Positions 4,994 through 27,911 of a stretch of 32,954 nucleotides of DNA are shown here, piece by piece. Position numbers and translations under genes: made by a program. The stretch is from Candidatus Cloacimonadota bacterium. GTDB taxonomy: Bacteria; Cloacimonadota; Cloacimonadia; Cloacimonadales; JAMOQM01. Location: the NCBI GenBank assembly GCA_027064005.1, contig JAMOQM010000009.1:1-32954 (forward strand), read 5' to 3'. The notes beneath the pieces were generated by a model. It was not told the DNA's origin. It was given only the letters and a program-made list of their open reading frames with translations, and ran no database searches. Position 1 is the stretch's first letter. Each line of letters opens with the position of its first letter.

Positions 4994-6661
4994 GTGATAA
5001 AAATTATTCAAAGTAAGAACGGATATTTAGTTCCGATAAAAAATAATATTTCTATTCACAGTCGATATAATCCGATTGAAGAAGGTAAAAAATATGCCGA
5101 CAGATTCCTGAATTCTGAGAAAAAAAATAATTCTCTAATCGTTATTGGACTTGGTTTTGGTTATCATATCTTTCCACTTTTAGAAAATTATGAAGAAATT
5201 ATTATTTATGAAAATGATGAAGAATTTTTTGAAAAAATGCCTTTAGAATTGAAAAATAAATTAACAAAATGCCAGATTATTAGAGATCTTAAATTATTGA
5301 ATTTTACCAAAAAATACGATATTTATTTAATTCCGGTTATGGAAAAATTTTATCCCGGTATTGTGGAAGAAATCACTGTTTTATCTCAAACCAATACAAA
5401 TGTTAAATACTCAAACTTACGAATAATGCTAAATTACCCGATTTATGGCGGTTCATACACAACTTCAATTTATGTGAAAAATGCTCTCAAGCAAATAGGC
5501 GTTAATTTGTCTGAAATGGACAATTCAATCGCCGAACCTCTTTTTGAGAAAATTAGAAATCTCGAAAATAAAGAAATCGGCGGAAATTTATCATCATTAT
5601 TAATTGATATTTTATCTTCTCTCTTTTGGGAAAAATACACTGAATTCAAACCTCATATTTGTTTATTTATGGCCCAATCCCCCATTTCCACAAATATTTT
5701 GAAAAAGATAAAAGAGACCGGGGGAATCAGTGCATTTTGGTTTGTAGAAGATTATAAAAGATTTGATTATTGGAAAGAATATGCTCCGATTTTCGATTTA
5801 TTTTGTACTATTCAGAAAGATGATTTTTTCGCCGAATTGAGTAAAATTAATGCAAAGAATATCTTATATTTACCAATGGCAGCTAGCAATTCTTTTTCCA
5901 AAGAAATTTCTTTAACCTCGGAAGAACTTGAATTTTACGGTTCCGATATTTCGTTTATGGGAGCAGGATATCCAAACCGGCATTCTCTTCTTTCAAAATT
6001 AACGGATTTTGATTTGAAAATTTGGGGTACGGATTGGAATGATAATAAAACATTACTGCCCTTTATTCAAAAAGAAGGGAAAAGAGTCAGTATTGATGAA
6101 ACGATAAAAATCTATAAATCGTCGAAAATTAATATCAACCTTCATTCTTCGATGAATTTTTCACCTTCAATAGAAAATGGCGATTTTGTTAATCCCCGTA
6201 CTTTTGAAATTTTGGCTTGTGGAGGATTCCAATTAATAGATAACCGCAAATATCTTCCGGAATTGTTTGAAGACGGTAAAGATTTGGTTGTGTTTCATTC
6301 TGAAGAAGATCTTAGAGAAAAAATAATTTATTATCTAAATCATCCTGAAGAAAGAGAAAAAATTGCGAAAACCGGTCAAAGTAAAGTCTTAACAAAATAC
6401 ACTTATGTAAACCGAATGAAAACGCTTTTAAACCTTCTCATAAAAAAATATCCGATAATTTCCGAAACAATATTTACCGAAAATGCCAGAAAAAATGAAG
6501 TTATTCAAAAAATAAGTAATCCTGATTTTAGAACATTTATTAAAGAAAGTGATTTTAGCAAAATTGACGATTTGGATAAAATGATAAAAAAAATCTCTGA
6601 AAGCGAAACGATGTCAAATTCAGAAGCAATTTTACGATTTATAAAAACATTTGAGGATTAA
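4994..6661 (+). CDS. CgeB-like (DUF3880-type) glycosyltransferase with Maf-like N-terminal motifs
   Basis: About 555 residues from the GTG at 4994. An in-frame TTG at 4982 is rejected because it overlaps the Shine-Dalgarno GGAGG (4984-4988), which is correctly spaced for the GTG. The N-terminal part has SRYNP and GLGFGYH, motifs I associate with the MptE/Maf-type glycosyltransferases of flagellar and surface glycosylation. The middle (FWFVEDYKRF, PMAASNSFS) and the C-terminal half (SFMGAGYPNRHSLL, VNPRTFEILACGGFQLIDN) match the CgeB/Glyco_trans_1 GT-B fold, with the acidic nucleotide-sugar-binding region RTFEI. No signal or membrane segment: cytoplasmic. Its TAA stop directly abuts the next ATG, so it heads a three-gene cassette. 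The acceptor is unknown. Confidence 0.82.
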   Translation: MIKIIQSKNGYLVPIKNNISIHSRYNPIEEGKKYADRFLNSEKKNNSLIVIGLGFGYHIFPLLENYEEIIIYENDEEFFEKMPLELKNKLTKCQIIRDLKLLNFTKKYDIYLIPVMEKFYPGIVEEITVLSQTNTNVKYSNLRIMLNYPIYGGSYTTSIYVKNALKQIGVNLSEMDNSIAEPLFEKIRNLENKEIGGNLSSLLIDILSSLFWEKYTEFKPHICLFMAQSPISTNILKKIKETGGISAFWFVEDYKRFDYWKEYAPIFDLFCTIQKDDFFAELSKINAKNILYLPMAASNSFSKEISLTSEELEFYGSDISFMGAGYPNRHSLLSKLTDFDLKIWGTDWNDNKTLLPFIQKEGKRVSIDETIKIYKSSKININLHSSMNFSPSIENGDFVNPRTFEILACGGFQLIDNRKYLPELFEDGKDLVVFHSEEDLREKIIYYLNHPEEREKIAKTGQSKVLTKYTYVNRMKTLLNLLIKKYPIISETIFTENARKNEVIQKISNPDFRTFIKESDFSKIDDLDKMIKKISESETMSNSEAILRFIKTFED

Positions 6662-8257
6662 ATGGAAAAAGCATTAATTATAAATTTAACGAGAATGGGT
6701 GATTTAATTCAAACAATCGGATTGGTAAAATCTTTAACAAGAAAAGGTTATAAAGTTGATTTTTTATGCGTAGAATCCTTCTCAAAAATATTGAATTATG
6801 TACCTGAAATTGAAAATATTATCAAAATTAATGCAGATAATTTCTTAACTAATTCATCAAAAAACGTGTTTGAAAAATATCTTGAAATTGAGGAAATTAT
6901 CAATTCTCTAAATCAAAACAATTATTCGCTTCTTGTAAATCCTATAGCTTCAATACCTTCTGCATATTTGAGTTTCATCATCAAAGCAAAAGAAAAAAAA
7001 GGCATAGTTTTTACTAAAAATAGAGAGCAGTCTATCAAATCAAAATGGTCTGCTTTTCATCTCGCAAATGAACATAATTCGGGAGATCACGGATTTAATT
7101 TGGTGGATATTTTTGGCGGAGTCGGAGATTGTAAGATTTCAAGAAACGATTACAAGATTAATTCTAAAGAAAAAACAGATTTTGGAATTAGAAACAATTT
7201 ACCAAAAATCGGATTTCATATCGGAGCAAGTAAATCAAATAAAACTTGGGAAAAGGAAAAATTTAAAACTGTGATTTTGGAATTGTTGAAAGAAAAATGC
7301 TGCAATATTATCCTTTTTGGCGGTTATAATGAGCTGTCTCTAAATCCATATTTTGCCGATGTTTCTTCTAATTTATTCATTAATAGAATTGGTAAAACCG
7401 GTTTAGATGAATTAATCTCGGAAATTTCTTCCTTAAATCTATTGGTAACAAATGATACGGGACCAATGCACATTGCGGCAATTCAAAAAATCCCGATAAT
7501 TGACGTTTCATTGGGACCGGTAAGTTTGTGGGAGACTTCGCCTTATTTGGAAGATTGTTTAATTATAGAAGCTAATATCAAATGCCATCCTTGCAAATTC
7601 AGTTATATTTGCGACCATCTTTCTTGTCATCATCTTATTCAGGAAAGTCATTTATTAGAAGCGATTAAATACAAATTAAATTTAGAAAATAATTTATCAA
7701 ATAATCAATCGGTTAATTTTTTCCAAACAAAATTTGATCCCGCCGGTTATCTCCATAACGTTCCGCTTTTTAAAAAAAATATTTCGGAATATGACTTATT
7801 TTTTGAATTAAAACGGCTGATCTGGATCCAATCTTTAGATCCTAATCTTGAGAATGATTTTCAGGAGAAATATTTGGAATATATAAAGAAATATTACTTT
7901 TTTGAAAACATCAATTTAGATTTTACAATATTGGCTAAAATCAACACAGATATCAAATATTTATTAGAAAAATTAAAAGATTTAAAAAACATAAACCTTA
8001 ACAGTGAAAAAGAAATTGACAGAATAAAACAAACTTGGACTGATGTAAAAGGAATTAAAGAAAGGCTATTTAATGCCAATAATAAAAAAGAAATTTATGA
8101 CTTTTTTCTCTTTGCAAAATTTAGAGAAAGTTCCTTAAATTCTTTAGATATAAAAAATATGATTAGTGAAACAATGAATATTTATGAATTGCTTCATCAT
8201 CAAATTAAAAGTTTGATTAAATTGCTTATGAGGTGCAACAATGAAAGTTTATCTTAA
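6662..8257 (+). CDS. Glycosyltransferase family 9 (heptosyltransferase-like) with long C-terminal extension
   Basis: 531 residues. The first 345 or so form a GT9 protein: N-terminal INLTRMGDLIQTI, IGFHIGASKSNKTW in the middle, and the signature TNDTGPMHIA at 263-272, which binds the nucleotide-sugar diphosphate. A cysteine cluster (CHPCKFSYIC...C) follows, as in many GT9 proteins of this type. Typical heptosyltransferases end near 350 residues. The remaining 185 here are predicted mostly helical, rich in Lys, Glu and Asn, and not recognised. The ATG follows the previous stop with no gap (GAGG at 6653-6656), and the third gene overlaps the end by 17 bases, so the three are translationally coupled. 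The helical tail may dock a partner or the acceptor protein. Confidence 0.85.
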   Translation: MEKALIINLTRMGDLIQTIGLVKSLTRKGYKVDFLCVESFSKILNYVPEIENIIKINADNFLTNSSKNVFEKYLEIEEIINSLNQNNYSLLVNPIASIPSAYLSFIIKAKEKKGIVFTKNREQSIKSKWSAFHLANEHNSGDHGFNLVDIFGGVGDCKISRNDYKINSKEKTDFGIRNNLPKIGFHIGASKSNKTWEKEKFKTVILELLKEKCCNIILFGGYNELSLNPYFADVSSNLFINRIGKTGLDELISEISSLNLLVTNDTGPMHIAAIQKIPIIDVSLGPVSLWETSPYLEDCLIIEANIKCHPCKFSYICDHLSCHHLIQESHLLEAIKYKLNLENNLSNNQSVNFFQTKFDPAGYLHNVPLFKKNISEYDLFFELKRLIWIQSLDPNLENDFQEKYLEYIKKYYFFENINLDFTILAKINTDIKYLLEKLKDLKNINLNSEKEIDRIKQTWTDVKGIKERLFNANNKKEIYDFFLFAKFRESSLNSLDIKNMISETMNIYELLHHQIKSLIKLLMRCNNESLS

Positions 8258-8843
8258 TGGAAATGTTAGTGAAATTAAAATCACATCTATTAGTACCCTG
8301 TCCGATGTAATCGTTCAAATGGAAAAAGAAATCGACAAATCTCAAATTATTACGGAATTAAAATTAAATGAAAAAATATTAGGAAGCGATTGGTATAATA
8401 ATGCAAAAAATATTTTCCTGCTTGATGAAGATGATTTATTCATTACAACCCAATCTTCAGATTATATTGCCGTTCAAGCATTAAATTCTTCTCAAAAATC
8501 TTTTGAAACAATTACTGCTGATTTTCAAAAAGTTTCCGATATGTTCAGATTTGATAATGAAATTAAAGCCAATTCCTATTTTGCTCAATGTATTGAAAAT
8601 TTTCAATGGTATCTTAAAATTATTTCTGATTCTCTTTCATTATTAGGTAAAAATTTAAGTTCTATCCAATTAAGTGATAAAAACCTTGAAGAAAAAATTA
8701 CAGAGTTATCCGCAAAATTGGAAGAAATGATTGAATGCCAACAAAGTAAAGATTGGATTTTATTGGCAGATATGATTGAATATGAACTTTTACCACTATT
8801 GAAATCATTAACGGAAATTTATGATATTCTTGAAATAAATTAA
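8241..8843 (+). CDS. Hypothetical protein of the glycosyltransferase cassette
   Basis: 200 residues, family not recognised. Residues 1-70 alternate short strands and a helix (MKVYLNGNVSEIKI, then LDEDDLFITTQS), suggesting a small beta-grasp-like or mixed alpha/beta domain. Residues 75-200 look all-helical with coiled-coil tendency. No signal peptide, membrane segment or catalytic motif is visible. GAGG (8230-8233) precedes the ATG, which lies inside the GT9 gene. The coupling and the acidic, helical nature suggest an adaptor, chaperone or acceptor-recognition subunit for the two glycosyltransferases; that is inference only. Confidence 0.7.
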   Translation: MKVYLNGNVSEIKITSISTLSDVIVQMEKEIDKSQIITELKLNEKILGSDWYNNAKNIFLLDEDDLFITTQSSDYIAVQALNSSQKSFETITADFQKVSDMFRFDNEIKANSYFAQCIENFQWYLKIISDSLSLLGKNLSSIQLSDKNLEEKITELSAKLEEMIECQQSKDWILLADMIEYELLPLLKSLTEIYDILEIN

Positions 8844-8972
8844 ATTTTATTGATTAAACTATTGTACGACTACAATAATGAATAATTAAAAAAGGTAAAA
8901 TTAAGAAAATATTCTCCTCCTTTCCGTTGATCTTGTTTTAATTCGGGTGCATTCGTATTTCCAAGCATAATC
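8844..8972. other. Intergenic DNA before the wtp promoter
   Basis: Holds a small 7-bp hairpin with loop CGAC (8860-8877) without a following T-run, so not a convincing terminator. At 8938-8957 the words TTAATTCG and CATTCG resemble parts of the long repeats at 732 and 1020, so this may be a decayed relative of them. Confidence 0.4.
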
Positions 8973-9002
8973 TTGACATAATATTTTACTAAACGAAATT
9001 TG
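8973..9002 (+). promoter_or_regulatory. FCB-type promoter of the wtp operon (TTGACA-N16-GAAATTTG)
   Basis: TTGACA (8973-8978) and GAAATTTG (8995-9002) have exactly the spacing of the promoters at 53-82 and 32882-32911. The predicted start, about 6-8 bases downstream, falls at the first base of the structured leader (about 9009), which supports both calls. Confidence 0.6.
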
Positions 9003-9008
9003 TTTCAT

Positions 9009-9142
9009 CACCGAGTAATTATTTCTAAACTTCTGGCACGAAATAATTACCGATGGGTATATTTGGAAACAAATATGCCTCCCGTATTTGGAAAGGTGGG
9101 ATCACAACCTTACCTTCCAATAATAAAAAATTGGAGGTTCTA
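9009..9142 (+). promoter_or_regulatory. Moco/tungsten-cofactor-type riboswitch candidate with Shine-Dalgarno-sequestering hairpin
   Basis: The 134-base leader is highly structured. Helix 1 is an 11-bp perfect stem, 9015-9025 with 9040-9050. Helix 2 is a 7-bp stem closed by GAAA, 9059-9065 with 9070-9076. Helix 3 pairs TCCC (9080-9083) with GGGA (9098-9101). The joining sequences CACCGAG, CCGATGGG, GCCTCCCG and GGAAAGGTGGGATCACAACC resemble, from memory, the conserved core of the Moco RNA motif (Rfam RF01055), whose variants precede molybdenum and tungsten genes. The expression platform is visible: ACCTTCCAAT (9112-9121) pairs with ATTGGAGGT (9130-9138, one bulge) and hides the ribosome binding site of wtpA. 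ACCTTCC could alternatively pair with GGAAAGGT (9090-9097). The downstream tungstate/molybdate importer fits feedback control by cofactor. Family assignment needs a covariance search; the structure itself is clear. Confidence 0.72.
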
Positions 9143-10075
9143 ATGAAATTATTAACTAAAATCTTACTACCGATTTTAGCGTTAACCCTCGTTTTTAGTT
9201 GTTCTAAAAATGAGAAAAAGAAAATTTACGTTTTCCACGCAGGAAGCTTATCAATTCCGTTTAAACAAATGGAAACAGCGTTTGAGACAAAATATCCTCA
9301 ATATGATATTCTCCGTGAATCCAGCGGAAGTCGAAAAGCTGCTCGAAAAATTTCTGATTTGCACCGAGAATGTGAAGTTATGGCAAGTGCCGACTATACT
9401 GTAATTGATAAGATCTTGATTGCGGACAAGTTTGCAAAATGGAATGCCAAATTTGCTACAAATGAAATGGCAATAATGTACAATCCAAAAAGCAAATTTG
9501 CTAATGAAATCAACAGTAAAAATTGGTATGAAATTCTTCAAAGAAAAGGTGTTCAATACGGGCACAGCGATCCAAATGCCGATCCTTGCGGATATCGAAC
9601 AATGTTAGTCTGGCAACTTGCGGAAAAGTATTACAAAAAGGCAGATTTGTTTAATAAATTAAATAAAGGTTGCCCGCTTAAAAATATTAGAAGTGCCGAA
9701 GTTGATTTAATCGGACTTTTAGAAGCAGGGGAATTGGATTATCTTTTTATTTATAGATCTGTTGCCGAACAACATCATTTACCTTTTGTAATTCTTCCTG
9801 ACGAAATTAATCTTAAATCAGCGAAATACAAAGATTTTTATAAACAGGCGACCTATGATGTTAACGGCAAAAAACCGGGTGAAAAAATCACAAAAACAGG
9901 TAAACCGATGGTTTATTCAATCACTATTCCATCAACCGCAAAAGAAATTAAAGGTGCGGAATTATTTGTAAAATTTGTTCTTTCAGCCGAAGGACAAAAA
10001 ATTATGACAGATAACGGTCAACCTTCGATTAATCCGGCTCAAATTACAGGTGAAATTCCCGACTTTTTGAAATGA
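9143..10075 (+). CDS. wtpA: Tungstate/molybdate ABC transporter substrate-binding lipoprotein WtpA
   Basis: 310 residues from the ATG at 9143, set by GGAGG (9133-9137). An in-frame ATG at 9053 would add 30 residues but lies inside the leader RNA and would remove the signal sequence from the N-terminus, so it is rejected. Residues 1-20 form a lipoprotein signal peptide ending in LVFSC (Cys20 lipidated). The mature protein binds oxyanions outside the cytoplasmic membrane: YVFHAGSL, RESSGSRKAARK, the WtpA hallmark DPNADPCGYRT and an acidic ligand region (SAEVDLIGLLEAGELDY) match the archaeal-type WtpA family rather than classical ModA. WtpA coordinates tungstate or molybdate through carboxylates. 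The stop overlaps wtpC (ATGA), forming one operon with ATPase and permease. Confidence 0.93.
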   Translation: MKLLTKILLPILALTLVFSCSKNEKKKIYVFHAGSLSIPFKQMETAFETKYPQYDILRESSGSRKAARKISDLHRECEVMASADYTVIDKILIADKFAKWNAKFATNEMAIMYNPKSKFANEINSKNWYEILQRKGVQYGHSDPNADPCGYRTMLVWQLAEKYYKKADLFNKLNKGCPLKNIRSAEVDLIGLLEAGELDYLFIYRSVAEQHHLPFVILPDEINLKSAKYKDFYKQATYDVNGKKPGEKITKTGKPMVYSITIPSTAKEIKGAELFVKFVLSAEGQKIMTDNGQPSINPAQITGEIPDFLK

Positions 10076-11100
10076 TGTTAAAAATAGAAAATTTAGATCT
10101 TAATATTTCTAAAAAACATTTACTGAAAAATATAAACCTTGAAATCGAGAAGAATGATTTTTTCGTTCTTCTCGGCTCAACGGGAAGCGGTAAAACCTTG
10201 TTAATTGAATCAATTATCGGATTGCATAAATATACCGGAAATATCTTTTATGAAGGAAAATCAATTAATAATACAAAGATTGAAGATAAGAATTTCGGAG
10301 TTGTTTTTCAAAACTTTGCTTTATTCCCTCATAAATCCGTAAGAGAAAATATCTTATTCTCAATAAAGATGAGAAAATTGCCGGATGGTGAATCCAAACT
10401 TAAATATCTCGCGGAAAAATTTGAGATTACTCATCTTTTAGATAGAAATCCTAAAAATCTTTCAGGCGGAGAAAAACAAAAAGTTGCCATCGCCAGAGCA
10501 ATTATCGGAAATTCCAAATTGTTACTTATGGATGAACCTTTCGCCGCAATCGACACTGCTTTTAGAAATATTATGTATAACTTCATCAAAAAAGTTCATA
10601 AAGAATTTGATTTAACGACAATTCTTATTACTCATAATTTTGATGAAGCTGTATTTTTGGCTGACAAAATCGCAGTAATAAATAAGGGAGAAATCCTTCA
10701 AATCGGGACGCCTAAAAATATTTTCTATCAACCCAAAAATAAATACATCGCCCAATTTGTTAATTCCGATAATATTTTTGAAATAGTTAAACGTGATTCA
10801 AAGTACTTTTTAGGAAAGATTGATATCCCTCTTGGTCAGGAATTTATCAACAAAAAATATGTGGTTCTCCATTCCGAAAACATAATCATTTCAAAAGAAA
10901 AAATAAAGAGTAGTGCAAGATTCTCAATCTTAGGAAAAATCACTGCCATTAACCAAAATTTATACCACTCAATAATTTCTATTGATGCCAAAAACAAATT
11001 CAAAGTAAGAATAACAAATCAATCATTAGAAAAAATGAATCTAAAAATCAATGGTGAAATCTACCTAACTTTTAAAGAAAGCAGTCTGATATTTATATGA
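10072..11100 (+). CDS. wtpC: Tungstate/molybdate ABC transporter ATP-binding protein WtpC
   Basis: 342 residues. The nucleotide-binding domain has Walker A GSTGSGKT (35-42), Q-loop Gln80, signature LSGGEKQKVAIARA (130-143), Walker B LLLMDEP (150-156) and the switch His188 in ILITHN. The last 110 residues or so form a small regulatory TOBE/MOP-like domain (VLHSENIIIS, ILGKITAI), as in WtpC/ModC proteins, where it can sense the oxyanion. It powers uptake through WtpB at the cytoplasmic membrane. It begins by an ATGA overlap with wtpA and has no separate Shine-Dalgarno sequence, so translation is coupled. The start may be either of two adjacent Met codons (10072 or 10075). Confidence 0.93.
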   Translation: MMLKIENLDLNISKKHLLKNINLEIEKNDFFVLLGSTGSGKTLLIESIIGLHKYTGNIFYEGKSINNTKIEDKNFGVVFQNFALFPHKSVRENILFSIKMRKLPDGESKLKYLAEKFEITHLLDRNPKNLSGGEKQKVAIARAIIGNSKLLLMDEPFAAIDTAFRNIMYNFIKKVHKEFDLTTILITHNFDEAVFLADKIAVINKGEILQIGTPKNIFYQPKNKYIAQFVNSDNIFEIVKRDSKYFLGKIDIPLGQEFINKKYVVLHSENIIISKEKIKSSARFSILGKITAINQNLYHSIISIDAKNKFKVRITNQSLEKMNLKINGEIYLTFKESSLIFI

Positions 11101-11870
11101 AAAAATTAATTTATCTCATTCTAATTATTTTATCAATAACCTTGTTTCTTTTTATTTTCATTCCACTTTTCAAGATGATAATTTCCGCAAATCCCAAATT
11201 AATTACAGATGCTTTGGCTGACAAAGAAATCGTTTCCGCAATTCTTCTAAGTTTTAAATGTGCTTTGATTGCAACAACCATTGCCTTGATTGCCGGGATT
11301 CCGCTTTCATTTTATCTTGCACGTTATGACTTTCCTTTCAAATCTCTGGTAGAAGCTGTTCTTGATATTCCCGTTATGATACCTCATACCGCCGTTGGCA
11401 TCGCCTTATTGACAGTTTTTGGCTCAAGATTCTTCCTCGGAAAATTATTTAATTCTATTGGAATTGATTTTGTCGGAACTGAATTTGGAATTATTATCGG
11501 AATGATGTACGTAAGTCTTTCATATTTAATAAATCACGCCAAATCCGGATTCAAAAATGTCGATCCAAAATTAGAAAAAGCTGCTCGAACTTTGGGTGCT
11601 TCATCTTTAAAAACCTTTTTTTACGTAACTCTGCCTTTGGCAAAAAATGACATTTTAAGCGGAGCTATTATGATGTGGGCAAGGGGATTATCGGAATTCG
11701 GAGCAGTTGTTATTTTGGCTTATCATCCGATGACGGCACCGGTTTTGATTTTGGAAAGATTTCAATCATACGGTTTAAATTATTCAAAACCAATTGCGGT
11801 TTTATTAATTTTAATTTGTATTGTGCTTTTTACTTTATTAAGATGGGTAAATAATAGAAAAAAATATTAA
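11097..11870 (+). CDS. wtpB: Tungstate/molybdate ABC transporter permease WtpB
   Basis: 257 residues with about six membrane helices, of the binding-protein-dependent permease family. The cytoplasmic EAA coupling loop is at about 160-180 (EKAARTLGASSLKTFFYVTL), followed by the usual Pro-rich turn and LSEFGAVVILAY, characteristic of ModB/WtpB. It overlaps wtpC by an ATGA. Gene order A-C-B, all overlapping, indicates a single transcript from the riboswitch-controlled promoter and ending at the hairpin 11877-11903. Confidence 0.93.
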   Translation: MKKLIYLILIILSITLFLFIFIPLFKMIISANPKLITDALADKEIVSAILLSFKCALIATTIALIAGIPLSFYLARYDFPFKSLVEAVLDIPVMIPHTAVGIALLTVFGSRFFLGKLFNSIGIDFVGTEFGIIIGMMYVSLSYLINHAKSGFKNVDPKLEKAARTLGASSLKTFFYVTLPLAKNDILSGAIMMWARGLSEFGAVVILAYHPMTAPVLILERFQSYGLNYSKPIAVLLILICIVLFTLLRWVNNRKKY

Positions 11871-19574: not shown

Positions 19575-19682
19575 TTTCACCTCATTCCAAATAAAAAATT
19601 AGGTTTAGCTAATGCAAGAAATAAATTTAATCTGCCACCTAAATCTTAAATTCTATTCCATATTCATAGGATATTTCCATAA

Positions 19683-19714
19683 AAAAAGTCCCTCTAAATT
19701 TTGAGGGACTTTTT
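19683..19714. terminator. Strong terminator after the giant surface protein gene
   Basis: A 12-bp perfect stem, AAAAAGTCCCTC (19683-19694) with GAGGGACTTTTT (19703-19714), and an 8-base loop. In the minus direction it lies 14 bases past the stop of the 1801-residue gene and ends in a T-run, so it should stop transcription before recG, which needs its own promoter. It is symmetric enough to act on both strands. Confidence 0.9.
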
Positions 19715-19728
19715 GGAATCGTTTCCGA

Positions 19729-22700
19729 TTATTTCAACAAAATAGCTTTTCTTGTTTGATGAATCTTACCCGCATTTAAGTTAATAAAATAAATGCCAGA
19801 ACTTACATCTTTGGAATTTTTATTTTTACCGTTCCAAATTAGAGAATGCATTGCTTCACCTTTTTGAATTCCTTGATGAAATTCATTAACTTTTTGACCT
19901 TTAGTATTATAAATTTTGACAATTACATCAGCATTTTTACTCAAATAGTAATTTATTGTTGTTTGAGGATTAAATGGATTTGGAAAAATCTTTTGAATCC
20001 CCGGTACAATTGTGATTTCCGGTGCATCAGGATTTTGTGGATCACCGGAACCAAGAGTAACGTTTACAGGTCCGAAGAATTGTGAACTTCCGTCCAAATC
20101 AAGACTTTCCAACCAATAATAATATTTTTTGGAAATTTGAACATCATTATCAATATAAGAATAATTACTCTCGTTAGAAGAATTTTCAGCTGGAATTAAA
20201 ACAGAAGTTATTTTGATTCGGCTATTTTCTTCATTAGTTATATTTCGATAAATATTATAACCTAAAATATCTGTTTCCGATTGCGTTATCCATTTTATTT
20301 GAGCAAGATTCTCGGCAGTTTGAATAGCTGTAAATGATGAAAGTTCGACAGGGAGAGTGGATTCATTGCCTTTATTTACAACAAATTCTTCTTCACCTCT
20401 TCTATTGGAAATCCAATCAAAAGCTACTTGTCCCTCAGTAAAAACAACATTATGAGCTTCTGTTTCAACAAGTTCCCAAGCAGTACCATTCAAATGTATT
20501 AATTCTGTTGGAATAAATCCACCTTTGAAATTAAAAGTAGTTCTTGTTGAATTTCCATTGGGAATAGTAAAATGAAGAGTAGCTCCACAATTAGCCGGAT
20601 TTGGAAGCGGTGTATTCGGCTGATCTTGCATCTGAATCGGAATATTTATGTTGCTTACCGCCGAGGTAAAAGTTAAATCAATAGTAGGAGTAACGGCACC
20701 GCTACCAAAATTAATTGGCGGAAAAACTATTTGTGGAGGAGTAGTTCCCGTGTAATTTTGAATTTCTTCATAAACAATTTCGGTAGGTTCTTCATTTGTA
20801 TTTGCAGGTTCTGCCATTACTGTAAATGACCATTCTGTTGGACTTGCACAATTTCCTTGAGCATTGTAAGGAATTATTTTCCAATTTACATTAGATCCCC
20901 AAGCAATTTGATTTAATTGTTTATGATATAATTTATTGGTTGTATATTCTACTGCCTGACCGACTTGAGTACCATTCTGTATAACTTTGAAATATGTTGG
21001 TAAAGTACTTCCGCTGTATCTCCAGCTAACCGTTACTGTTCGTGGCAAATCCGTTGAATTATTTGCCGGAAAAACATTTGTGGCTGCTGTTGGAGCAGAT
21101 CCGAATGCTTGCCATTGTAAATAAGGATAACCGCTATTGTTGCTACTATCTATACTCCAATCACCGGAATTGGTTGTGAAATCCCAATTTGCATTTGTAA
21201 AAGTAGCTTGAGTTTTCATTTCTACCGTGGTTTTTGCTGTAGCTCCTAAACAGGTTGATTGGTTAGAGACTTCACTATCAAAAAAATTGTTTGTATATAT
21301 TTCCGTATCATTTTCATTATGAGCACCAATAAAGCCTTTGTCAGCTGCCAAACCATCAGCATTTCCCCAAATAGTACCTTCCGAACTAAATATTTGAGAA
21401 GCAGAATAGCAATTTTGAATTGTGATATTTCCGGAATTATGACCCATGAATGTTCCAAAAACCGTATTATCCCCTGAAATCCTTACTATCTTTGATTGTG
21501 AATAACAATTACTAATGTTCATTGAATTATTATCTCCAATAAGTCCTCCGCTATACGTAATTCCTTTAACATTTCCATTACTGTAAGAATTACTAATCGT
21601 ATTTGTAGTGTAAATAGAGGTAGTCATTCCTATTAAATTACCGACACATATAGTTCCAATAACAGAATTGCTTACTGAACAAGAGGTTAAATTTTTTCCC
21701 TCATAGTATCCAATTAATCCACCGGTTACTATCTCTCCCTTAACTGTCCCTAAATTAATATGACAATTTTCTATGTCATAACCAAACTTATAGCCAATTA
21801 AAGCACCTGTATTGTTTCTTCCGGTTATATCTGCTGACGCTAATATCAAATTTTTCACATAACCTGATAAATTATTTATATATCCAAACAATCCAACATT
21901 ATCAGTTAAAGATCTGTTGATATATAAATTGCTTATTGTATGATTATCTCCATCATAATTTCCGGTAAATTTGTTAGTCTCATTACCAATTGGAGAAAAT
22001 CCATTGTAAGTCCCATTTCCATCTAAATTCCAGTAAGATGTAGCAGAAGCATCGATATCAGCGGTTTGCTTAAAATATTTATCCCAAACGGAAATATGTG
22101 TGCTTAACCATAATAAATTGTCTAAATTTGCAATTAAATACGGGTCTGCTTCCGTTCCACTTCCGGTTGCCGGTATCCCACCGTTAACAATTGTAATATT
22201 TACCGGATCGAAAAATTGGGAATTTCCATCCGAATCAATACTTTCCAACCAATAATAATATGTTTGTGACATTTGAACACTGTTATCAATATATGAATAA
22301 GTAGTTTCGTTAGGTGAATTTACAGCAGGAATTAATGTAGAAGTTATTTTGGTGCGAGTATTTTCATCATCACTAAAATTTCGATAAATATTGTAACCTG
22401 CCAAATCTAATTCGTATTGCACAGTCCAATTTAATTTAGCAAAATTATCTTGATTTTGAATAACATCAAATGATGTTAGCGCAGCAGGGAAAGTAGAATC
22501 ATATCCAAATTCTCCCGGAGTTCCTGAAGTGCTTGTTAGAGTAGCCCAGTTCCCATTATTTTTACGAATAATTCGTTTATTTACCTGTATTTCCGGAGTT
22601 CCTTCAACTATGGCTTTTGAATTGTAGTTAAGCGCGTAAGCGTATCCTTCGGTAATTTCAAGAGAGCTATTACCGGAATCATAGTTGGTATTTGTTAAAG

Positions 22701-25134
22701 ATTTTAACCAAGCAAGATTAATATCCGATAAAGATCCACCATTCCCTATTACAAAAAAACTTCTCCCCGGTATTGAATATCCTTGAGGAATGCTATATGA
22801 ATATGATCCTGAAACAAATCCGGACCCATCATCTGTTCCTTTTATTATACTATACCCGTCTAAACTTATTTCTGAATAATCACTATTGTATAATTCTATA
22901 AAACCTGTATTTTCATTTTCTCCAGTTTTGTTATCGCATACTTCACTTATATAAAGATTCCCGGAATTTGTTTGAGAAGAAGTAGTGAAGGTTATTGTTT
23001 TTCCGTAAGATGTTCCATAAGAATTTGTTGCATAAGCTCTAACATAATATTCAGTCATAGGTAAAAGATTTGTTAAAGAAGAATGATACGTACCTCCACC
23101 GGAACTACCATCTTCAGTTTTATTATCATTAATAGTAGGATCACCTGTAGTATTCCAACAAGCACCTTTTTGAATAAGATAATTTTCTCCGACATCAGTA
23201 ATATTTCCGGTAAAATCAGCTGTTTCCATTGTTATATTATTTACATCTTCCGTATATACTGTGGGGTCAGCTAAATCTCCGCCTCTTAGGTAATTAATAG
23301 AATAAGAATCTCTACTGAAGTGATAAGCTTTTATTCCTTTTAACGCTATAAGTATATTATCATTATCAATTGAGCCATCATTATATACGTGAAACATTAT
23401 ATATCTTGTATCAAAATCTGCGGTTGTAATTATTGTTGGATTTGATACATAACCATCACTTTCATGGTTGGTCCCTTCTCCTATAGTTTTGATGTTTGTA
23501 ACCGGTACCCAGCCCGAATCAAATGAAAGAGGTTGTCGTGAATCAAGATATTCGGTATTTTTATAAATCTGTATCCCGGTTGTTTTGCCATCATAAAACC
23601 CTTGAAATACTCTAAATTGATTAATAGAAGTTACCTGGTGCATGTCAATAACCAAAATACCGTATCCTCCCGCAGAATTATGCCAATAAGTTCCTTCACT
23701 ACTATCTGTTTGAAACCAATTGTCAGGATCATTTAAAAAATTATTTCTATCCCAAACCGCACAAGGAGGGTTCATTCCACTCCAATTATCCAAATTATGG
23801 TATGGTATTGTAACACCGCCATAAGAATTTATTTCAATAGGAATTGCCGGAATGGTGGAATAAACATCATGGGTTCGAAACTTAACTTCCTCCCCATAAT
23901 TGGTTCCTGCACTGTTGGTAACAAAAGCTCTTAAGTAATAAGTAGTATAAGGTGAAAGATTTGTAAGTGAAGCACCAAAAGTACCTGTATATGATACTTC
24001 ACCCAATTCTAACTTAGAATCAAAAATTGTAGGAAAGCCGGTTGTACTCCAACAAAAACCATGTTGGGTAACATTTGAAGTCCCAAGATAAGTAATTTTA
24101 CCATGTGCATTTGCTGAGTTCACAGTTTCATCTGTTACATATTGTGTTGTTACGGAAGGTTCTGCTTGTGGAGGGACACCATCATTTATTGTCCAATTAT
24201 AAGCTTCTATTATGTGTTGTCGAGCAGCTAAAGGGTCTCCGTCTGAACAAGTATTATTTCCGGCATCAAGCGTAACATATGTTTTTAAATTTAGTGATGA
24301 CCAACCTATTAATAGTGCGTCATAATTAGCTCTTGAAAGTGAAACATCCGTAAGCATACCATTCATACGACTAACATTGCTTACATCCCATTGATCGAGA
24401 TTTTGATTGAAATTCTCCGCCCCCCAAAACATCCATCTCATATCGTTTACCTGTGAAACATTCCATGAATTAATATTTTGATTGAATGCGACTGCACTAT
24501 AAAACATATACTCCATAGTACTTACACTTGAAACGTCCCATGAATTAATGTCTTGGTTGAATGCGATTGCTCCTGAAAACATTGAGCTCATATCAATTAC
24601 ATTACTGACATCCCATGAATATAAAGGTTGATTAAAAGCTTCGGCACCATGAAATAAACCTTCCATTCGCTCAACATTTGAAACATCCCATGAATTAATG
24701 TTTTGGTTGAATGTATCACAATTATAAAACATATAGTCTAAAACCACTACACTGGCTGGTAGCTCATTAGGTACTTCTACAACAGAAGAATTTGCACATG
24801 CGTTTGTAAGGTCAATAAGTCCAATATCTCCAAAGCTAAGAATTTTAGTTAGTGATTGGTGTTGATTACTGCCAAACCCCGTTAGTTCCCCGGATATTGT
24901 AACAGTATGATTACCGGCATTTGCATATGTATGACTATGAAATCCATAATCTGTAATATGTTCCGAAGCTCCGTCTCCCCAATCAACAGTTACATTAACG
25001 TCCCCATTCAAACACATTTCTACACTATCACCATCATATGCAGTTTCATAAATTAATGTCATCGGTGAAGCCATTAAACCTGTAGCAAATAGCCATAACA
25101 AAACCACAATGGATATAAATAGGTACTTTTTCAT
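19729..25134 (-). CDS. Giant modular secreted surface protein with BspA-type repeats and Por/T9SS-like tail
   Basis: 1801 residues. A signal peptide covers 1-22. Approximate modules: a PKD-like segment with VDWGDG (51-55); five 25-residue BspA/DUF285 repeats (135-259); an Fn3-like region (325-425); a discoidin-like segment (445-530); a second Fn3-like region (635-715); a lamin-tail-type domain (725-870, LYISEVCDN, GFIELYN); an Fn3-like module (880-985); a GLUG-rich region (990-1330, repeats such as GLIGYYEG and GGLIGDN); a beta-rich segment; a second copy of the 880-985 module (about 1597-1700); and a C-terminal tail with FPNPFNPQTTINY and VKIYNTKGQKV, as in proteins exported or anchored by Por/T9SS-like systems in FCB bacteria. 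An adhesin or extracellular binding role is likely; no catalytic site is seen. AAGGAGG (25142-25148) inside the end of the preceding gene couples it to the 77-aa gene and the sigma-54 promoter. Confidence 0.9.
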   Translation of the reverse strand: MKKYLFISIVVLLWLFATGLMASPMTLIYETAYDGDSVEMCLNGDVNVTVDWGDGASEHITDYGFHSHTYANAGNHTVTISGELTGFGSNQHQSLTKILSFGDIGLIDLTNACANSSVVEVPNELPASVVVLDYMFYNCDTFNQNINSWDVSNVERMEGLFHGAEAFNQPLYSWDVSNVIDMSSMFSGAIAFNQDINSWDVSSVSTMEYMFYSAVAFNQNINSWNVSQVNDMRWMFWGAENFNQNLDQWDVSNVSRMNGMLTDVSLSRANYDALLIGWSSLNLKTYVTLDAGNNTCSDGDPLAARQHIIEAYNWTINDGVPPQAEPSVTTQYVTDETVNSANAHGKITYLGTSNVTQHGFCWSTTGFPTIFDSKLELGEVSYTGTFGASLTNLSPYTTYYLRAFVTNSAGTNYGEEVKFRTHDVYSTIPAIPIEINSYGGVTIPYHNLDNWSGMNPPCAVWDRNNFLNDPDNWFQTDSSEGTYWHNSAGGYGILVIDMHQVTSINQFRVFQGFYDGKTTGIQIYKNTEYLDSRQPLSFDSGWVPVTNIKTIGEGTNHESDGYVSNPTIITTADFDTRYIMFHVYNDGSIDNDNILIALKGIKAYHFSRDSYSINYLRGGDLADPTVYTEDVNNITMETADFTGNITDVGENYLIQKGACWNTTGDPTINDNKTEDGSSGGGTYHSSLTNLLPMTEYYVRAYATNSYGTSYGKTITFTTSSQTNSGNLYISEVCDNKTGENENTGFIELYNSDYSEISLDGYSIIKGTDDGSGFVSGSYSYSIPQGYSIPGRSFFVIGNGGSLSDINLAWLKSLTNTNYDSGNSSLEITEGYAYALNYNSKAIVEGTPEIQVNKRIIRKNNGNWATLTSTSGTPGEFGYDSTFPAALTSFDVIQNQDNFAKLNWTVQYELDLAGYNIYRNFSDDENTRTKITSTLIPAVNSPNETTYSYIDNSVQMSQTYYYWLESIDSDGNSQFFDPVNITIVNGGIPATGSGTEADPYLIANLDNLLWLSTHISVWDKYFKQTADIDASATSYWNLDGNGTYNGFSPIGNETNKFTGNYDGDNHTISNLYINRSLTDNVGLFGYINNLSGYVKNLILASADITGRNNTGALIGYKFGYDIENCHINLGTVKGEIVTGGLIGYYEGKNLTSCSVSNSVIGTICVGNLIGMTTSIYTTNTISNSYSNGNVKGITYSGGLIGDNNSMNISNCYSQSKIVRISGDNTVFGTFMGHNSGNITIQNCYSASQIFSSEGTIWGNADGLAADKGFIGAHNENDTEIYTNNFFDSEVSNQSTCLGATAKTTVEMKTQATFTNANWDFTTNSGDWSIDSSNNSGYPYLQWQAFGSAPTAATNVFPANNSTDLPRTVTVSWRYSGSTLPTYFKVIQNGTQVGQAVEYTTNKLYHKQLNQIAWGSNVNWKIIPYNAQGNCASPTEWSFTVMAEPANTNEEPTEIVYEEIQNYTGTTPPQIVFPPINFGSGAVTPTIDLTFTSAVSNINIPIQMQDQPNTPLPNPANCGATLHFTIPNGNSTRTTFNFKGGFIPTELIHLNGTAWELVETEAHNVVFTEGQVAFDWISNRRGEEEFVVNKGNESTLPVELSSFTAIQTAENLAQIKWITQSETDILGYNIYRNITNEENSRIKITSVLIPAENSSNESNYSYIDNDVQISKKYYYWLESLDLDGSSQFFGPVNVTLGSGDPQNPDAPEITIVPGIQKIFPNPFNPQTTINYYLSKNADVIVKIYNTKGQKVNEFHQGIQKGEAMHSLIWNGKNKNSKDVSSGIYFINLNAGKIHQTRKAILLK
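24358..24732 (-). repeat. Five in-frame 75-bp repeats (BspA/DUF285) in the surface protein gene
   Basis: Five consecutive 25-residue units, residues 135-259, with consensus MFxxAxAFNQxINSWDVSNVxxM. Each unit keeps AFNQ (or an equivalent), the Trp and the V-S-x-V core. The surface of such repeat solenoids is often a binding face. Identity between units makes this stretch prone to expansion or contraction by recombination. Confidence 0.9.
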
Positions 25135-25136
25135 TT

Positions 25137-25370
25137 TTAAGCCTCCTTAGCTTTTGATTCGATTAGTTCAATTAATTCGTTGTAATTTTTTTTCAGTTCT
25201 TCCACCTGGGATTTTAGCTTAAACCAATTTCCCTCAAGATAGAGGTTTCTTATATTTCCTGCTTTAAATATTATAGTAAAACCATATCTTTGATTTATTT
25301 TATCTTCTACAAATTCGCTTATAAAGCTAATCTCTGTTAGATTGAATCTAAAAAAATACGAATTTTTCAT
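25137..25370 (-). CDS. Small hypothetical protein preceding the giant surface protein
   Basis: 77 residues from the ATG at 25370, chosen because AAGGAG (25376-25381) precedes it. An upstream in-frame start at 25427 has no ribosome binding site and would place the sigma-54 promoter inside the gene. No signal peptide or membrane helix: cytoplasmic. Residues 5-47 look like alternating strands (FFRFNLTEISFI, YGFTIIFKAGNIRNLYL), and 50-76 form a charged amphipathic helix with coiled-coil tendency. Family not recognised. It is the first gene of the surface-protein operon: the next Shine-Dalgarno sequence begins before its stop is cleared, and only two bases separate stop and next ATG. It may be a regulator, chaperone or partner for the surface protein, or act on the divergent activator; none of this is shown by sequence. 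Confidence 0.7.
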   Translation of the reverse strand: MKNSYFFRFNLTEISFISEFVEDKINQRYGFTIIFKAGNIRNLYLEGNWFKLKSQVEELKKNYNELIELIESKAKEA

Positions 25371-25396
25371 TACAACTCCTTGTTGTTTATTAAGAG

Positions 25397-25412
25397 AGCA
25401 ATGATTGTTCCA
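25397..25412 (-). promoter_or_regulatory. Sigma-54 (-24/-12) promoter of the 77-aa/surface protein operon
   Basis: The minus strand reads TGGAACAATCATTGCT. The consensus is TGGCACGnnnnTTGCW. The invariant GG and GC are present exactly ten bases apart, and only two defined positions differ. A transcript would begin near 25386, five bases before the Shine-Dalgarno sequence of the 77-aa gene. A divergently encoded sigma-54 activator lies 157 bases upstream, which makes a functional promoter very likely. Confidence 0.78.
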
Positions 25413-25449
25413 AAAAATAAAAACCATTATCTAAGCTCCATAACCTTTT

Positions 25450-25478
25450 ATTATATAATCAATTACATAATATTGCAA
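25450..25478 (-). promoter_or_regulatory. Alternative sigma-70-like promoter for the same operon
   Basis: The minus strand has TTGCAA (25473-25478), 17 bases, then a perfect TATAAT (25450-25455). In DNA this A/T-rich a TATAAT is easily found by chance, and the window's other promoters are of a different type. It could give basal expression beside the sigma-54 promoter. Confidence 0.3.
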
Positions 25479-25530
25479 TTTATTGTCTTCCGGGAAAAAC
25501 AAAAAAAGTAAAAATAAAATTGACAGACTT

Positions 25531-25542
25531 AGCGATATCGCT
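25531..25542. promoter_or_regulatory. 12-bp perfect palindrome, candidate activator-binding site
   Basis: AGCGATATCGCT lies between the divergent genes, 119 bases upstream of the sigma-54 promoter and 27 bases before the activator's start codon. Enhancer-binding proteins with Fis-type helix-turn-helix domains bind palindromes of this size at about this distance. It also lies 5 bases after a TTGACA (25520-25525), so occupation could control the activator's own gene. Confidence 0.5.
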
Positions 25543-25568
25543 TCTCTAAATCGAAAGGAGTTGCGATA

Positions 25569-27911
25569 ATGCTAAATACTAATTTATATAAATTTGAAGA
25601 GTTTGAAGAAAAATTAAATAAAGTTGGGAAAATAGAAAGTCTGGGAATATATTCAGAAATTCTTGCGGAATGTTCTTCTAAAAAAAATAGTGATATTTAT
25701 AAATATTTTGATTATTTCTTAGAACTAATTGAGCAATACTTGAAGTTTGATCCTAATCCCCCGGGAAGAATAAAAAATATTATCTCTCTTAATTTTCAAA
25801 TTGTTTTTAAATATATTCGCGATACATCTTCTTTAGATCAATTTAAGAAATATGATAATGAACTAAAAAAATATGATCATTTAATTACCGATAAACTATT
25901 ACGAGCAAAAATTTATCAATATTTAGGTTATCTGTTCTGGCTTATTCCTGAAATTTCAAAAGGAATTGAATGCCTGGAAGAATCATTGTCGCTGATAAAT
26001 GAAACAGGGAAAGTTGATGAAATCCCCGGCAGATATACTAATATAGGATATTTGTACGAAGAAATAGGAGATACAGATAAAGCTGAATATTATTATTCGC
26101 AAGGACTGAATTTTGCAAAAAAATATAATTCGCAAGAAGCATTAAAGTCCGCCTATACTTCAATGGGACGGTTATATAGATCACGACATTATCTTAACAA
26201 AGCAATACAATTTTTTGACAAAGCCCTGTCTTTATATTATACGAAAGAAAATTTAAATAAAGTAAATATTATCTGTAATTTGGCAAAATGTTATCTTGAA
26301 AAAGAGGATTATAAAGTCGCCTTAAAATTACAAAAACAAATACACGAAGAATGGGTAAAAAAAAATAACCCGACACTTTATTTTTCCATTAATGAATGTC
26401 TTGGTGTAACCTATAAGCATTTAAAAAAATACGATTTATCAGAAAATTTACTATTAGAAAGTAATAAATACTTTTCTGAAAACAATCTTGAAGGAGAATT
26501 ATGCGAAAATTATATACATTTAAGTTCTCTATATATAGAAAAGAATGAAAATCAAAAAGCATTTGAGATATTAAACAAAGCTTTAGAACTGGCTAAAAAA
26601 AATGATAACGATTCCGATAAAAAGGAAATTTTTATTTTGTTGGGAAATTTATTGAAAAAAGAAAAAAAAGTTAAAAAAGCAATTTCTTATTTCAAAAAAG
26701 CTTTAATGTTGAATAAAGGAACGAAAAAGGATTATGAAAACCTAGAAATAATTTCTTATCTTTCCGAATGTTATGAAGAAATAGAAAATTACAAAAAATC
26801 AAGTGAATATCTGAAAAAACAAAAATCTCTATTTTCCAAAATAATTAAAGAAAAAGACAACAAAATTATAGAATTACAAAATAATTCCATAATAGGTGTA
26901 AGTGGAAATAAGCATTATCTTTTTAAGCAAAGTGATTCTTTGATACCAATAGAATTGACTGAAAAAATTGGGGCACATTTAATTGGGGTAAGTGATAAAA
27001 TGATAAAACTTGTAAATCAAGTAATTACCTTTGCCGGCAATAGCGATATTCCGATTTTAATAAGAGGTGAAACAGGTACCGGTAAAGAACTCATTGCAAA
27101 ACTTATTCATTATTCCAGTTCAAGAGCGGAATATCCGTTTATTGCTATAAATAGCTCGTCTTTTACCAAAAGTTTAGCTTCCGGTTCTTTATTCGGTCAT
27201 AAAAAAGGTTCTTTTACTAATGCAATAAAAGACCAAAAAGGATATTTCGAAGCAGCAAACAAAGGAACACTTTTTTTTGATGAAATAGGAGATATGCCTT
27301 TAGATATTCAATCTAGTTTACTAAGAGTTTTGGAAGAAAAAAGCATTTTACCTATTGGAGCCAATAAAGAAATAAAAATTGATTTTAGATTAGTCACTGC
27401 AACGAATATCGATATTTATAAAAAAGTAAAAAATAACGAATTTCGTTTGGATTTTTTAAATAGAATTAATGTCTTAGAAATAACAATTCCTCCTTTACGC
27501 GAGAGAAGAGAAGATATCCCGCTATTAATAAATTATTATATTAATGATATTTCAAATAAATTCAATATCAATATAAAAAAAATAAAATTAAAAAATTCGT
27601 TTTTAAAGAAATTGTATAATTATGACTATCCCGGAAATGTGAGAGAATTGAAAAATATAATCGAAAGATTTTTGATGAATTATAATAATAATATTGATTG
27701 GGATACCATAATTCTTAAAAGAAACGAAATTACTACTCATCATAATGATACAGCTCAACCGCAATTATTAAATTTGATGGAAAATGAGAAAAAACTAATT
27801 TTAATAGCTCTAAAAGAAAGTAACAATGTTAAAACTCGGGCAGCGGAATTATTGGGTATCTCAATATATGCTCTTTCCCGAAAACTAAAAAAATATGAAA
27901 TAGTAACGTAA
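25569..27911 (+). CDS. TPR-containing sigma-54-dependent transcriptional activator
   Basis: 780 residues. Residues 1-430 are TPR-like helical repeats (for example GYLYEEIGDTDKAEYYYSQG and SMGRLYRSRHYLNKAI), presumably sensing a partner. About 470-700 are the AAA+ domain with Walker A GETGTGKE (500-507), Walker B GTLFFDEIGD (566-575) and the arginine-finger region FRLDFLNRINVLEI. The sigma-54-contacting loop, normally GAFTGA, is GSFTNA at 547-552; the essential Phe and Thr remain. The C-terminus (about 735-780) is a Fis-type helix-turn-helix (TRAAELLGISIYALSRKLKKY). AAAGGAG (25554-25560) precedes the ATG. It is divergent from the 77-aa/surface protein operon, which carries a sigma-54 promoter, so that operon is the likely target. 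No receiver or PAS domain is present. Confidence 0.93.
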   Translation: MLNTNLYKFEEFEEKLNKVGKIESLGIYSEILAECSSKKNSDIYKYFDYFLELIEQYLKFDPNPPGRIKNIISLNFQIVFKYIRDTSSLDQFKKYDNELKKYDHLITDKLLRAKIYQYLGYLFWLIPEISKGIECLEESLSLINETGKVDEIPGRYTNIGYLYEEIGDTDKAEYYYSQGLNFAKKYNSQEALKSAYTSMGRLYRSRHYLNKAIQFFDKALSLYYTKENLNKVNIICNLAKCYLEKEDYKVALKLQKQIHEEWVKKNNPTLYFSINECLGVTYKHLKKYDLSENLLLESNKYFSENNLEGELCENYIHLSSLYIEKNENQKAFEILNKALELAKKNDNDSDKKEIFILLGNLLKKEKKVKKAISYFKKALMLNKGTKKDYENLEIISYLSECYEEIENYKKSSEYLKKQKSLFSKIIKEKDNKIIELQNNSIIGVSGNKHYLFKQSDSLIPIELTEKIGAHLIGVSDKMIKLVNQVITFAGNSDIPILIRGETGTGKELIAKLIHYSSSRAEYPFIAINSSSFTKSLASGSLFGHKKGSFTNAIKDQKGYFEAANKGTLFFDEIGDMPLDIQSSLLRVLEEKSILPIGANKEIKIDFRLVTATNIDIYKKVKNNEFRLDFLNRINVLEITIPPLRERREDIPLLINYYINDISNKFNINIKKIKLKNSFLKKLYNYDYPGNVRELKNIIERFLMNYNNNIDWDTIILKRNEITTHHNDTAQPQLLNLMENEKKLILIALKESNNVKTRAAELLGISIYALSRKLKKYEIVT

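What the first reader, a model, noticed from the sequence alone, without database searches (positions are those of the whole stretch)
19729..27911. Self-contained sigma-54 switch for a giant secreted protein
Three parts fit together: a TPR-type sigma-54 activator, a divergent near-consensus -24/-12 promoter with a palindrome about 120 bp upstream of it, and an operon of one unknown 77-aa cytoplasmic protein and an 1801-aa surface protein. The parts belong to known families, but I know of no described system pairing a TPR enhancer-binding protein, a small cytosolic protein and a BspA/GLUG modular protein. It may be a way to display a large adhesin only on a protein-borne signal.
Basis: partly seen in the sequence, partly recalled or inferred. 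Interest (0 to 1): 0.78.

Follow-up and report, generated by a model that had tools for sequence, protein, structure and literature searches.

The report
Sigma-54 switch for one surface protein
A bacterial control gene sits back-to-back with an operon that makes an undescribed small protein and one very large secreted surface protein; the same set recurs across the bacterium's phylum, so it looks like a conserved way of switching single surface proteins on and off.

Summary
A TPR sigma-54 activator (25569-27911 +) lies divergent to a two-gene operon: a 77-aa protein (25140-25370 -) and an 1801-aa protein with signal peptide and type-IX (Por) tail (19729-25134 -). A -24/-12 site (25412-25397 -) predicts a start at 25386. 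The main addition: the 77-aa protein belongs to an undescribed family (motif GFTIxYxNGxIxN; no Pfam or NCBIfam family) with 45 hits in 29 of 125 genomes of this phylum and no convincing hit in 396 genomes of the Bacteroidales-containing phylum. It lies within 1 kb of a sigma-54 activator in 26 cases, directly before a signal-peptide protein in 27, and has a -24/-12-like site upstream in 28 of 41 (shuffles: mean 1.0, max 5). The activator's own upstream region carries TTGAC plus enriched GCGA/TCGC half-sites (AGCGATATCGCT here). The layout resembles pspF/pspA. I read it as a dedicated switch for single type-IX cargoes; the small protein most likely feeds back on the activator, which is untested. 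The 'protein-borne signal' and 'adhesin' parts remain speculation. New variant of a known kind.

The parts
25569..27911 (+). TPR-type sigma-54 activator, 780 aa: TPR superhelix (about residues 2-436), AAA+ (472-638), Fis-type HTH (740-776); AAA+ loop reads GSFTNA instead of GAFTGA
   Evidence: Pfam, model, loop comparison
25530..25543 (.). UAS-like palindrome TAGCGATATCGCTT, probable activator binding site
   Evidence: sequence; half-site enrichment in relatives; only exact copy in the genome
25520..25525 (+). TTGACA, probable -35 element of the activator's own promoter
   Evidence: TTGAC at this place in 13 of 16 relatives against 0.6 expected; also at 41 of 140 other gene starts; no consistent -10 found
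25397..25412 (-). sigma-54 -24/-12 promoter TGGAACAATCATTGCT, predicted start 25386
   Evidence: sequence; conserved in relatives
25137..25370 (-). 77-aa cytosolic protein, founder of the GFTIxYxNGxIxN family
19729..25134 (-). 1801-aa secreted protein: signal peptide-like start, PARCEL/DUF285 repeats, lamin-tail domain, GLUG-like repeats by eye, Por_Secre_tail
19681..19714 (.). terminator-like hairpin with T runs on both strands, end of the operon
   Evidence: sequence

Best explanation
It is a locally acting sigma-54 switch dedicated to one type-IX-secreted surface protein. The TPR activator binds palindromic sites next to its own gene; bound there it probably damps its own transcription and, once its TPR domain is relieved by an unknown signal, loops over about 120 bp to open the -24/-12 promoter. 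This yields one mRNA for the 77-aa protein and the 1801-aa protein, which is exported by the type IX system. Because the 77-aa protein is the first product and its gene all but touches the next one, I think it most likely reports operon output back to the activator and limits it, as PspA does to PspF. Shown by sequence comparison: gene layout, promoter, enriched half-sites, conservation, rpoN and a SprA homologue in the genome. Inferred: DNA binding, looping, self-repression, one mRNA. Guess (about 0.4): the feedback role of the small protein.
For: rpoN and SprA are in the genome. Relatives of the activator at 30-46% identity again face a -24/-12 site and a secreted gene. Small-protein family: 45 hits in 29 of 125 genomes; 26 lie within 1 kb of a sigma-54 activator, 9 divergent and 17 co-directional; 27 are followed within 300 bp by a gene with a signal peptide-like start; 28 of 41 have a -24/-12-like site near their start versus shuffle mean 1.0, max 5, and 5% of control ORFs. 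TTGAC in 13 of 16 and half-sites 46 versus 18.8 upstream of the activators. Only one exact UAS copy in the genome although it has dozens of Por tails. [quoted passage not shown]
Against: No expression or binding data. The activator's AAA+ loop is GSFTNA, which may weaken sigma-54 contact. Several activator loci lack the small protein, and some small-protein loci have no activator nearby, so neither strictly needs the other at the locus. Two members sit beside response-regulator-like activators, so the TPR part is not the obligatory target. No consistent -10 for the activator gene. Exact palindromy at the site is only modestly unusual (22 of 1000 shuffles as good).
Confidence: 0.6

Rival explanations
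1. Same switch, but the 77-aa protein is a cytosolic escort or export-quality factor for the large cargo (binding its signal peptide or Por tail), not a regulator.
For: The small gene stays with a secreted gene even where no activator is adjacent (for example L182, L184, L178, L059); the two genes overlap by 4 bp or lie within 3 bp in 11 loci, which favours matched amounts; the shared element among partners is the Por tail.
Against: The partners' other domains differ widely; the genome has dozens of Por-tailed proteins but one small-family member, so most cargoes need no such helper; activator-cargo loci without the small protein exist (L050).
Confidence: 0.3
2. The small protein is a short leader gene of little function, kept for translation coupling, and the locus is an ordinary sigma-54 activator with a surface-protein target.
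For: The small proteins are divergent (mostly 18-41% identity to the window copy) and absent at many activator loci.
Against: A profile finds members outside its training set (L062 E=2e-11, L059 E=2.5e-7) in the expected place, and the model is confident (pLDDT 87.5), so it is a conserved folded protein.
Confidence: 0.08
3. The activator mainly controls other genes elsewhere and the adjacency is incidental.
For: Activators can act in trans, and some small-family loci have no activator nearby.
Against: The divergent layout with a -24/-12 site recurs at about the same distance in relatives; the UAS-like 14-mer has no second exact copy, and the one near-match read in full lies inside a coding region.
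Confidence: 0.07

Closest known systems
E. coli PspF / pspABCDE (phage-shock) control
   Same: Receiver-less sigma-54 activator divergent to its target operon, whose first product is a cytosolic protein; in Psp that product inhibits the activator (PMC6003685). AAA+ domain of the same fold.
   Different: The activator here has a large TPR part; the 77-aa protein has no detected relation to PspA; the target is a type-IX cargo, not a membrane-stress operon. Inhibition is untested.
PEP-CTERM / PrsK-PrsR sigma-54 regulon
   Same: Surface proteins with a C-terminal sorting tag under sigma-54 control with upstream activator sites (PMC1569441).
   Different: There one two-component regulator serves many genes; here a TPR activator sits beside one cargo, with a different sorting tag and a small-protein first gene.
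Activator inhibitors such as FleN (of FleQ) and HrpV (of HrpS)
   Same: Cytosolic proteins that bind a sigma-54-type activator and limit it (own knowledge; FleN-FleQ structures appear).
   Different: No sequence or fold relation between the 77-aa family and any solved protein was detected.

Membership tests
Sigma-54 enhancer-binding protein | AAA+ sigma-54 interaction domain with Walker A | tested here: met
   PF00158 E=2.6e-57; GETGTGKE
Sigma-54 enhancer-binding protein | GAFTGA loop | tested here: inconclusive
   GSFTNA in the window and its near-identical copy; relatives mostly GAFTGA or GSFTGA
Sigma-54 enhancer-binding protein | Fis-type HTH and rpoN in the same genome | tested here: met
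   HTH_8 E=3.7e-11; Sigma54_DBD E=6.6e-49
Type IX secretion cargo | N-terminal signal peptide and C-terminal Por/T9SS type A tail | tested here: met
   PF18962 33.8 bits, cut-off 27; TIGR04183 28.3, cut-off 23; signal peptide by sequence only
Type IX secretion cargo | Type IX translocon in the genome | tested here: met
   SprA_N over cut-off, E=1.8e-11; other components not searched
PspF/PspA-like control | Activator divergent to its sigma-54 operon | tested here: met
PspF/PspA-like control | First operon product binds and inhibits the activator | not testable with these tools
   needs an interaction or reporter assay
PspF/PspA-like control | First operon product is a PspA homologue | tested here: not met
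   no Pfam or NCBIfam match to PspA; predicted beta sheet plus one helix, not a long coiled coil

The most novel reading that the evidence does not exclude
The GFTIxYxNG family is a new class of cytosolic regulator that couples export of single type-IX cargoes to sigma-54 activation: it holds the activator until the cargo it is made with engages the secretion system, giving each surface protein its own secretion-gated switch.
Probability: 0.22. Interest if true: 0.82.

Novelty: new variant of a known kind. Interest (0 to 1): 0.6.

Why it matters
How type IX cargoes are regulated one by one is poorly known (own knowledge), and I found no paper in the held library that pairs sigma-54 activators with them. 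A recurrent switch with its own small-protein family in a little-cultured phylum is a concrete, testable module: one activator, one -24/-12 promoter, one small protein, one surface protein. It also gives a new protein family of about 65-115 aa whose place in the operon points to a regulatory or export-coupling role.

Tried and rejected
Known family for the 77-aa protein: none by Pfam, NCBIfam (only a sub-threshold helix match to Lacal_2735), PDB sequence (chance level) or PDB fold (best E 0.25). Presence outside the phylum: no match in 8 genomes reached through other-phylum loci and one weak match with stops in 396 genomes of the phylum of L098, a Bacteroidales record. Naming the organism: the single genome-collection scan returned only generic activators from other phyla; I suspect Cloacimonadota from genome sizes and gene content, untested. 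Second genomic targets of the activator: of the near-matches, the one-mismatch site near sprA lies inside a coding region; the others were not examined. The near-identical locus in G004 (98% activator, 97% small protein, 90% large protein) sits alone on an 8.4-kb contig of a genome from another family; it may be a misbinned contig or recent transfer and was left out of the promoter count. The activator fold search returned only AAA+ relatives among the matches shown, nothing on the TPR part.

Full report
What is there. The window is contig C9 of a 2.4-Mb, 153-contig genome. The activator (25569-27911 +, 780 aa) has a long TPR region, a sigma-54 AAA+ domain and a Fis-type HTH, with no receiver domain; the AlphaFold model shows TPR-like helices to about residue 436, then AAA+. 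On the other strand lie a 77-aa gene (start 25370; the 96-aa ORF begins upstream of the -24/-12 site and cannot be the sigma-54 product) and, 2 bp on, an 1801-aa gene with a signal peptide-like start, PARCEL/DUF285 repeats, a lamin-tail domain and a Por tail over the curated cut-offs. The -24/-12 site TGGAACAATCATTGCT runs from 25412 to 25397 on the minus strand and predicts +1 at 25386. A terminator-like hairpin follows the large gene.

rpoN is present, and a SprA-type translocon protein is present. Synteny is conserved: among 58 relatives of the same order, activators 30-46% identical to this one again face a -24/-12 site and a secreted gene.

The small protein is a family. Remote relatives were found beside these activators, aligned, and used to search the phylum: 19 of 125 genomes with six seeds, then 45 hits in 29 of 125 genomes with twenty; the last few hits are weak. 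Two members outside the training set were recovered at E=2e-11 and 2.5e-7. The motif is V-S-x-I ... G-F-T-I-x-Y/F-x-N/D-G-x-I-x-N, followed by a helix; the model is confident (pLDDT 87.5; strands, then helix 49-76). No described family or fold matches. In the phylum that holds L098, a Bacteroidales record, there is no convincing member (one weak match with stops in 396 genomes).

Context counts. In one search, 26 members have a sigma-54 activator edge within 1 kb (9 divergent, as here; 17 downstream of the activator in the same direction). In one search, 27 are followed within 300 bp by a gene with a signal peptide-like start; in 11 the two genes overlap by 4 bp or lie within 3 bp. In one search, 28 of 41 have a -24/-12-like site (score 5 or more) near their start, against a shuffle mean of 1.0 (maximum 5) and 15 of 281 control ORFs. 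The 26 and 27 include the window and its near-identical copy in G004; the 41 exclude that copy. The members found by the first, activator-adjacent seeds bias the activator count upwards, but the phylum search itself did not look at context. The secreted partners examined share the Por tail but not their other domains. The activator tree places small-protein loci in both main groups, divergent in one and nearly always co-directional in the other, consistent with an old association, rearranged and sometimes lost.

The activator's own upstream region. In 13 of 16 activators examined TTGAC lies 45-76 bp before the start (0.6 expected), followed by GCGA/TCGC-type half-sites (46 versus 18.8 in shuffles, maximum 32). 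In the window it is TTGACA-GACT-TAGCGATATCGCTT. TTGAC also precedes 41 of 140 other genes, so it may be an ordinary -35; no consistent -10 was seen. Perfect palindromy at that exact spot is only modestly unusual (22 of 1000 shuffles as good). Binding there would place the activator both over its own promoter and about 120 bp upstream of the sigma-54 promoter. Only one exact copy of the 14-mer exists in the genome.

How it most likely works. A low level of activator sits on its sites; an unknown input acts on the TPR part; the activator then drives the sigma-54 promoter; the operon makes the small protein first and the type-IX cargo second. For the small protein, feedback on the activator is my first choice (about 0.4), escort of the cargo second (about 0.3). 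Points against feedback: loci with one but not the other, and two members beside response-regulator-like activators. The AAA+ loop GSFTNA departs from GAFTGA and deserves an activity test.

Compared with the known. pspF/pspA shares the layout and the first-gene regulator (PMC6003685), but the proteins other than the AAA+ domain are unrelated. PEP-CTERM/PrsR shares sigma-54 control of sorting-tagged surface proteins (PMC1569441), but with one two-component regulator for many genes. A broad sigma-54 survey links the factor to the cell exterior (PMC3162934) and does not mention TPR activators. I therefore call it a new variant of a known kind, with an undescribed small-protein family as its new element.

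Noticed in passing
G004:C313 (L045, 1-8359): A 98%-identical copy of the activator with the small and large genes sits alone on an 8.4-kb contig of a genome from another family, which also has its own 40%-identical activator: misbinned contig or recent transfer.
   Followed up: partly
window 25569-27911 (AAA+ loop): The sigma-54 contact loop reads GSFTNA instead of GAFTGA, only in this locus and its near-identical copy among 33 compared.
   Followed up: partly
L053, 10800-11470: The secreted gene after the small gene looks broken into several short ORFs while activator, promoter and small gene are intact.
   Followed up: no
L048, 1-395: An activator closely related to that of L047 has no small gene and no recognisable -24/-12 site in the 394 bp held upstream, suggesting loss of the target.
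   Followed up: no
G000:C54 (L057, 3654-7925): A second kind of TPR activator of about 1,430 aa occurs in many genomes of the order; upstream of this copy lie two near-identical 190-aa ORFs that look like transposase-type proteins.
   Followed up: no
G000:C126, about 5800-11500: A gene with a type-IX tail, a coaX-like gene and sprA lie in a row, suggesting a type IX gene cluster.
   Followed up: no
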